42,568 nt of DNA. It comes from Erysipelotrichaceae bacterium. GTDB taxonomy: Bacteria > Bacillota_I > Bacilli_A > Erysipelotrichales > Erysipelotrichaceae. Under the pieces are notes generated by a model. That model was not told where the DNA came from. It worked only from the letters and a program-made list of their open reading frames with translations, and ran no database searches. The translations under genes were made by a program, and so were the position numbers. The stretch lies in assembly GCA_031272515.1 (NCBI GenBank), contig JAISTR010000013.1, positions 1 to 42,568 on the forward strand, in the 5' to 3' direction. Below, in pieces: positions 41,758 to 42,568 of the stretch (within the stretch, counting starts at the first letter, position 1; every line of letters begins with the position of its first letter).

Positions 41758-42453
41758 ATGTTGATTGTTTATTTCAGCGGGACCGGAAATACCCGGCATT
41801 TAGCAAAAAAACTCGCTGCTTTACTGAACTGTGAAAGCAGTTCGATTGAAGAAAAACAAACAGAAGTGAAACTTGCCCAAAGTGCGCAAGTCATACTGGC
41901 ATATCCGGTGTACTTCAGCGGTCCGCCAAAGATTATCAGTGAGTTTGTGGAAAGCCAAACCTGGCAAAACAAACAGGTCTTTTTACTGACAACCTGCGGT
42001 TTGATGAATGGCGGTGCCATCAAGAGCATGGCAGAAACCTTGAAAGCGGCAGGTGCTGCGATTCTTGGCGGCATGTCGTTTCAAATGCCGGAAAACATCG
42101 GTGACAATGCTTTGTTTATGAAGGTGCTGCCACCATCCGGCAACAACAAAAAAATCGTCAAGGCAGAGATCGGCATAGAGCTGTTGGCAGCCAAGATCAA
42201 GCGTGGGGACTACCCGCAGAAGGGCCTGCGGATGGCAGTCAGCACGCATGTGAACAGTGATGTGAAAATGAAAATCGATGAAACAAAATGCAATCACTGC
42301 GGGTTGTGCAAGAAACTGTGTCCTTACCAGGAAGAATATGGAACCAAGTGTACGCTTTGTTACCGCTGCTATGCCAACTGTCCCCAACAGGCAATCACCG
42401 GCTTTGGCAAAAAGGTTGTTGTCCAGTACACATTTGAAAAGGAGCTGGAGTGA
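41758..42453 (+). CDS. EFR1-family flavodoxin-ferredoxin
   Basis: The 231-residue protein fuses a flavodoxin-like FMN domain (IVYFSGTGNTRHLAKKLA at the N-terminus, YPVYFSGPPKII near residue 48) to a C-terminal 2[4Fe-4S] ferredoxin. The cluster motifs are CNHCGLCKKLCP near 178 and CTLCYRCYANCP near 200. It should shuttle electrons between flavin and low-potential clusters in an anaerobe; partners are unknown. A perfect TATAAT lies at 41727-41732 and GAAGGGGTGG precedes the ATG. The TGA stop belongs to the GTGA that abuts the mobile-element end, so the gene may just be complete. Confidence 0.92.
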   Translation: MLIVYFSGTGNTRHLAKKLAALLNCESSSIEEKQTEVKLAQSAQVILAYPVYFSGPPKIISEFVESQTWQNKQVFLLTTCGLMNGGAIKSMAETLKAAGAAILGGMSFQMPENIGDNALFMKVLPPSGNNKKIVKAEIGIELLAAKIKRGDYPQKGLRMAVSTHVNSDVKMKIDETKCNHCGLCKKLCPYQEEYGTKCTLCYRCYANCPQQAITGFGKKVVVQYTFEKELE

Positions 42454-42568
42454 ACTACCCAAGGCTAAAGCCTTGGGCTTCAGGGGTCCCCGGCGACCGC
42501 TTATCGGCAGGGATGGTATGAATGCCAACCCGCGCTCCCTTGGGGGCGCTGCCAACAGAGGCGGTCGT
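42454..42568 (+). mobile_element. Left part of an IS200/IS605-type element (IscB/HEARO-like), continues beyond window
   Basis: The last 115 bp are GC-rich and unlike the preceding sequence. They start ACTACCC directly after GTGA and contain a perfect stem-loop CCCAAGGC-TAAA-GCCTTGGG (42458-42477) then GGGCTTC. That subterminal hairpin form is typical of IS200/IS605-group ends. HEARO elements are reported to insert after ATGA or GTGA, which fits. The other end and any protein gene lie outside the window, so the call cannot be closed here. A tnpB element in the opposite orientation is the main alternative. Confidence 0.5.
42454..42568 (+). ncRNA. Structured RNA, possible HEARO/omega RNA (partial)
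   Basis: Beyond the first hairpin, CGACCGC (42494-42500) can pair with GCGGTCG (42561-42567) to close a domain. Inside it, GGCAG (42506-42510) can pair with CTGCC (42549-42553), TGGTAT with ATGCCA (42514-42519 with 42522-42527) and CGCTCCC with GGGGGCG (42533-42539 with 42542-42548). Two of these helices contain G-T pairs on the plus strand that become A-C mismatches on the minus strand. This favours a plus-strand RNA, as for an omega RNA upstream of iscB. The 3' end is outside the window. Confidence 0.5.

What the first reader, a model, noticed from the sequence alone, without database searches (positions are those of the whole stretch)
42454..42568. Possible HEARO/omega RNA (IscB-type guide RNA scaffold) at the right edge
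Seen: a GC-rich, highly structured block begins right after a GTGA, with a perfect subterminal stem-loop (42458-42477) and a closed multi-helix domain (42494-42567). G-T pairs in two helices support a plus-strand RNA. Known: IS200/IS605-group elements carry subterminal hairpins; HEARO RNAs lie upstream of iscB genes and their elements are reported to insert after ATGA/GTGA. Inferred: a compact RNA-guided nuclease gene may begin just outside the window, and the RNA guide would be read from EFR1 3' sequence.
Basis: partly seen in the sequence, partly recalled or inferred. Interest (0 to 1): 0.75.

Follow-up and report, generated by a model that had tools for sequence, protein, structure and literature searches.

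The report
Right end of a TnpB transposon
The folded block at the window's edge is the right end of an ordinary multi-copy bacterial jumping gene (IS200/IS605 type, tnpA plus tnpB) read on the opposite strand; it should encode the guide RNA of the nuclease TnpB, not the IscB/HEARO RNA that was suggested.

Summary
The structured block is real. It begins at 42450 and runs off the contig. The same ~115 bp occurs nine times in this genome, always at a contig end. It is the right end (RE) of an IS200/IS605 element read on the MINUS strand, and the contig breaks because the repeat collapsed. A second nine-member family of contig ends carries the matching left end (LE) with a Y1 tnpA. Joining LE and RE flanks restores unbroken genes: DUF4143, YdjC and a lipoprotein. 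The target is CTAC in 8 of 9 cases, with no target duplication. Complete relatives in four genomes carry tnpA, tnpB and a right end with the same terminal hairpin. The 58-aa minus-strand tail found here is in register with their tnpB frame. The minus strand folds better in all nine copies. A pseudoknot between a stem-loop (GGAAC) and the guide-proximal tail (GUUC) covaries to GGAGC/GCUC in relatives and matches the solved ISDra2 omegaRNA. HEARO (RF02033) gives no match. So this is a TnpB omegaRNA scaffold; its predicted guide is antisense to the 3' end of the EFR1-like gene (42449 down to 42430). New member of a known kind; interest low.

The parts
42450..42568 (-). Right end (RE) of an IS200/IS605 tnpA+tnpB element, cut off by the contig end; also the 3' part of the predicted TnpB omegaRNA (reRNA) scaffold
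   Evidence: Nine copies, 97-100% identical, all at contig ends; homologous right ends in L049, L052, L058, L163
42450..42455 (-). Element terminus 5'-GTTCAC-3' (minus strand); its GTTC (42455-42452) is the 3' half of the predicted pseudoknot next to the guide
   Evidence: Boundary fixed by in-frame joining of LE and RE flanks at other copies; covarying partner GGAAC/GGAGC; pseudoknot geometry as in ISDra2 (PMC10097598)
42458..42477 (-). Subterminal RE hairpin (CCCAAGGC/GCCTTGGG), expected to be both the TnpA recognition hairpin and the last omegaRNA stem
   Evidence: Sequence; conserved in relatives
42494..42567 (-). Closed multi-helix domain of the RNA scaffold
   Evidence: Minus-strand MFE fold, z = -5.3 for 115 nt
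42455..42568 (-). 3' end of tnpB: in-frame C-terminal tail of the nuclease gene, running through the scaffold to a TAG at 42457-42455
   Evidence: Open frame in all nine copies, 58 aa in the longest; landmarks GAAGC, GGAACG and GAAGCCCAA in the same frame as in L161 TnpB
42430..42449 (-). Predicted guide segment, 5'-TCCAGCTCCTTTTCAAATGT-3' (flank adjacent to RE; about 16 nt in the ISDra2 reRNA)
   Evidence: Position inferred from ISDra2 reRNA anatomy (PMC8612924); flank sequence
41758..42453 (+). Host gene next to the insertion: flavodoxin/4Fe-4S (EFR1-like) ORF; the element supplies its present TGA stop. A CTAC target would have given an original TAG stop with the same protein
   Evidence: ORF; Pfam Flavodoxin_5 and Fer4; target CTAC from the other copies

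Best explanation
The block is the right end of a nine-copy IS200/IS605-type insertion sequence (LE - tnpA - tnpB - RE) lying on the minus strand and cut off by the contig end. Shown here: repeat nature, boundaries, LE/RE pairing, target motif, the tnpB-frame tail, and the conserved RNA fold with its pseudoknot. Inferred from known members: the TnpA Y1 transposase excises and reinserts the element as single-stranded DNA 3' of CTAC, using the subterminal hairpins. The transcript of tnpB running out through RE is processed into an omegaRNA whose 3' end, copied from the adjacent EFR1-like gene, guides TnpB to cut the vacated CTAC + flank site. Repair from the sister copy then restores the element.
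For: Nine near-identical copies at contig ends. Nine other contig ends share an LE, with tnpA (PF01797, E 7e-26) on those that reach far enough. LE|RE joins rebuild DUF4143 (E 4e-18 across the junction) and YdjC (profile 1-265/266) without a break, and a lipoprotein with its LLGC box, so LE and RE are ends of one element. Independent queries, RE DNA and TnpA protein, both pick out G215, G268, G164 and G139, whose elements carry tnpA, tnpB (PF01385, PF07282) and an RE ending GGGTAG[TC]TCAC. The minus-strand tail is in the TnpB register. The minus strand folds better in all nine copies. Pairs are 99% standard, with 5 of 18 pairs changed on both sides, including one of the pseudoknot. ISDra2 pairs -5U..-3C with a GAA loop in the same way.
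Against: The body of this genome's own tnpB next to this RE is not in the assembly (no contig spans LE to RE), so its presence rests on homology and frame. The 58-aa tail alone has no Pfam match. No Rfam family matches. The alignment for the pair count was hand-cropped to the structure and holds six sequences. No RNA data. Only three of the nine LE/RE pairs were matched, and the LE partner of the window's copy is unknown.
Confidence: 0.93

Rival explanations
1. HEARO/IscB omegaRNA on the plus strand: the block is the 5' scaffold upstream of an iscB gene beginning just outside the window, guide from the EFR1-like gene on the plus strand.
For: The flank/scaffold order would fit an IscB locus; GTGA at the border; plus-strand fold z = -2.7.
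Against: No RF02033 match even at E up to 10. The three longest copies, up to 183 bp, show a tnpB-frame tail on the minus strand. The paired LE carries tnpA reading towards this RE. All complete relatives have tnpA+tnpB. GTGA is part of the element, while the conserved target is CTAC at the other end.
Confidence: 0.03
2. A tnpB-less IS200-like or decayed element: the nine RE copies keep a remnant scaffold but no functional tnpB, and are mobilised by TnpA alone.
For: The middle of the element is not assembled; mini elements exist in relatives.
Against: The tail frame is open in all nine copies and in register with TnpB of relatives. The scaffold stem-loop and pseudoknot are kept, which TnpA is not known to need.
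Confidence: 0.04
3. DNA hairpins only: the fold serves TnpA recognition and no guide RNA is made from it.
For: Subterminal hairpins are TnpA substrates in this family (PMC10278001); no transcript data.
Against: The structure extends over more than 110 nt, is stronger as minus-strand RNA, and includes a covarying pseudoknot with a loop about 135 nt away, as in the ISDra2 omegaRNA.
Confidence: 0.06

Closest known systems
ISDra2 (Deinococcus radiodurans) tnpA-tnpB element and its TnpB reRNA/omegaRNA (PMC8612924, PMC10097598)
   Same: tnpA and tnpB between LE and RE; insertion 3' of a short motif without target duplication; RNA from the 3' end of tnpB plus RE; hairpin next to the guide; pseudoknot between the guide-proximal tail (-5U to -3C) and a GAA in the loop of stem 1
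   Different: Target/TAM here CTAC (8 of 9) instead of TTGAT; stem-1 loop lies farther from the guide (about 135 nt versus about 104) with a larger G+C-rich domain between
tnpA+tnpB elements L161/L162 (G215, G268) and L163/L164 (G164, G139), same bacterial family
   Same: Best TnpA matches (66-69% identity), LE and RE ends alike, stem 1/pseudoknot/hairpin layout, tail frame in L161/L162
   Different: Flank motif at LE TTAG/TTTAG instead of CTAC; scaffold middle not alike in sequence
HEARO RNA (RF02033) / IscB
   Same: IS200/IS605-group guide-RNA scaffold next to a flank-derived guide
   Different: No covariance-model match, RNA on the other strand and at the other end of the element, nuclease gene of tnpB type

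Membership tests
IS200/IS605 family element | Y1 (HUH) transposase gene tnpA | tested here: met
   PF01797 on LE contigs C15, C34, linked to this RE by flank joins
IS200/IS605 family element | Subterminal palindromes at LE and RE | tested here: met
   LE hairpin CCCACGGTTTTAACCGTGGG and RE hairpin
IS200/IS605 family element | Insertion 3' of a fixed short target, no target-site duplication | tested here: met
   CTAC at 8 of 9 LE flanks, CTTC at one; joins restore frames exactly
TnpB / omegaRNA (OMEGA) system | tnpB gene with RuvC and zinc-ribbon domains directly upstream of RE | tested here: inconclusive
   In-frame 58-aa tail here; complete TnpB with PF01385/PF07282 in relatives; own gene body not assembled
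TnpB / omegaRNA (OMEGA) system | Scaffold with 3' hairpin within about 10 nt of the guide and a guide-proximal pseudoknot | tested here: met
   compared with PMC10097598 and PMC10278001
TnpB / omegaRNA (OMEGA) system | RNA-guided cutting of TAM + flank | not testable with these tools
   Needs expression and a cleavage assay
HEARO / IscB | Match to RF02033 | tested here: not met
   No hit at gathering or E<=10 on the window end, nor at E<=1 on the locus with the 183-bp copy
HEARO / IscB | iscB (RuvC split by HNH, RRXRR N-terminus) downstream of the RNA | tested here: inconclusive
   No RRXRR in the genome, but the control genomes were silent as well

The most novel reading that the evidence does not exclude
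The element uses a TnpB with a rearranged RuvC-II motif (relatives read VQDEM/MQDEM where typical TnpBs have an ED motif), an extended G+C-rich scaffold and a CTAC TAM, giving a TnpB with a not yet described combination of target motif and scaffold.
Probability: 0.25. Interest if true: 0.3.

Novelty: new member of a known kind. Interest (0 to 1): 0.2.

Why it matters
It corrects a HEARO/IscB call to a TnpB element on the other strand and explains the contig break. It also gives a natural example of an insertion that leaves the host protein intact, and a covarying pseudoknot that supports the ISDra2 omegaRNA architecture in another lineage. Otherwise ordinary.

Tried and rejected
HEARO by Rfam: nothing. 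Exact DNA pattern in genome contigs and a degenerate one in viral contigs: nothing. RE DNA in plasmids and phages: nothing. Tail peptide in genome contigs and in 392 genomes of the phylum: only this genome. Pfam on the tail: nothing. EFR1-like protein in viral contigs: nothing. The other tnpB genes of this genome (C52/C39/C31 family with ends GGGGAGGATGTCAA; the C29 copy) have different ends and are not this element. Matches to the stem-loop pattern at L244 and L249 in G248 lacked the RE and were dropped as chance. The C15S|C12S join (both look like pieces of one winged-helix protein) seems to lack a middle part and was not counted; C34S|C46S is possible but unproven.

Full report
What is there. 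The hairpin at 42458-42477 and the closed domain at 42494-42567 are present as described. The block starts at 42450 and is a repeat: the genome holds nine copies, 97-100% identical, each starting GTGAACTACCC and each running off a contig end. It was not found in the other 59 of 60 genomes searched as relatives. It is therefore a mobile-element end at which the assembly broke, and 'GTGA' is part of the element.

Which element. I read all 110 contig ends of the genome and grouped them. Besides the nine right ends (RE) there is a second group of nine ends with another terminus (..CTAC|AAAATGCGAGCGGGAGAGCCCACGGTTTTAACCGTGGG..), followed on the longest of them by a Y1 transposase gene, tnpA (PF01797). 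Joining flanks in a script shows that the two groups are the two ends of one element. C23S|C27S restores a DUF4143 protein whose Pfam domain runs across the junction (2-156/160). C15E|C29S restores a whole YdjC protein (1-265/266). C52E|C30S restores a lipoprotein with LLGC. These joins fix the boundaries: the flank at the left end ends in CTAC (8 of 9; CTTC once), the right end finishes TTCAC, and no target is duplicated.

Relatives. A DNA search with the 183-bp right end and, independently, a protein search with TnpA converge on the same four genomes (G215, G268, G164, G139; TnpA 127-138 bits, next best 102). Their elements are complete: LE, tnpA, tnpB (PF01385 and PF07282 shown on the L161 protein), and RE ending in the same hairpin and GGGTAG[TC]TCAC. 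In L161/L162 the tnpB frame continues through the RE to the terminal hairpin. The 58-aa minus-strand frame here (EALNPDSK...EAQGFSLG*) has its landmarks EAL, ER and EAQ in the same frame, so it is read as the C-terminal tail of TnpB. The body of this genome's tnpB is not assembled; this step is inference.

Strand and RNA. In all nine copies the minus strand folds better than the plus strand. On one copy z is -5.3 against -2.7 for 115 nt. Variants at repeat positions 46 and 115 keep G-U pairs only on the minus strand. About 135 nt from the guide lies a stem-loop with loop GGAAC, complementary to the GUUC next to the guide. In L163, L058 and L053 the loop is GGAGC and the tail GCUC. On a hand-cropped six-sequence alignment 99% of cells pair and five pairs change on both sides, against 1.6 in shuffles. 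The solved ISDra2 TnpB omegaRNA has the same pseudoknot, with -5U..-3C pairing a GAA next to stem 1 (PMC10097598), and almost all TnpB scaffolds surveyed end in a hairpin within 10 nt of the guide (PMC10278001).

How it most likely works. By analogy with ISDra2 (PMC8612924), TnpA moves the element as single-stranded DNA to CTAC sites. The tnpB transcript yields an omegaRNA that ends in flanking DNA. Here that is 42449 down to about 42430 on the minus strand, antisense to the 3' end of the EFR1-like gene. TnpB guided by it would cut the emptied CTAC site so that repair restores the element. None of this activity was tested. The insertion replaces the presumed TAG stop of the EFR1-like ORF by the element's TGA without changing the protein; the original TAG is inferred from the CTAC target.

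HEARO is not supported: no RF02033 match, opposite strand, tnpA/tnpB genes. The RRXRR search was uninformative because controls were silent. Verdict: a new member of a well-known kind.

Noticed in passing
L055/L253 (G241:C133), L061/L251 (G241:C99), L060/L252 (G215:C9), L054 (G246:C184): Very short (about 46-50 bp) single-hairpin elements that fuse the LE start (such as AAAATCAGCGCGGGAAACCCC) to the RE end (GGGTAGTTCAC), flanked by TTAG/TTTAG; they may be mini elements mobilised by TnpA or deletion products. Four in 273 genomes.
   Followed up: partly
L035 (C52), L036 (C39), L037 (C31), contig ends C17E, C8S, C33S, C35S, C36S: A second IS605-type tnpB family in the same genome, right end ..CCGTGGGGAGGATGTCAAG, about four copies.
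   Followed up: partly
L040:1428-2636 (G000:C29): A third, single-copy TnpB (402 aa) with the sequence YMQDENL at RuvC-II instead of the usual ED motif, next to a tnpA remnant with stop codons.
   Followed up: no
L161-L164, tnpB: TnpB of the closest relatives reads VQDEM/IQDEM/MQDEM at RuvC-II and SRDIKSAQ at RuvC-III, suggesting one of the clades with rearranged catalytic residues.
   Followed up: no
contig ends C30E, C54E, C43E, C8E: Contigs also break inside repeats of what look like surface proteins (..GGWY..LYAKW.. repeats in C30E/C54E).
   Followed up: no
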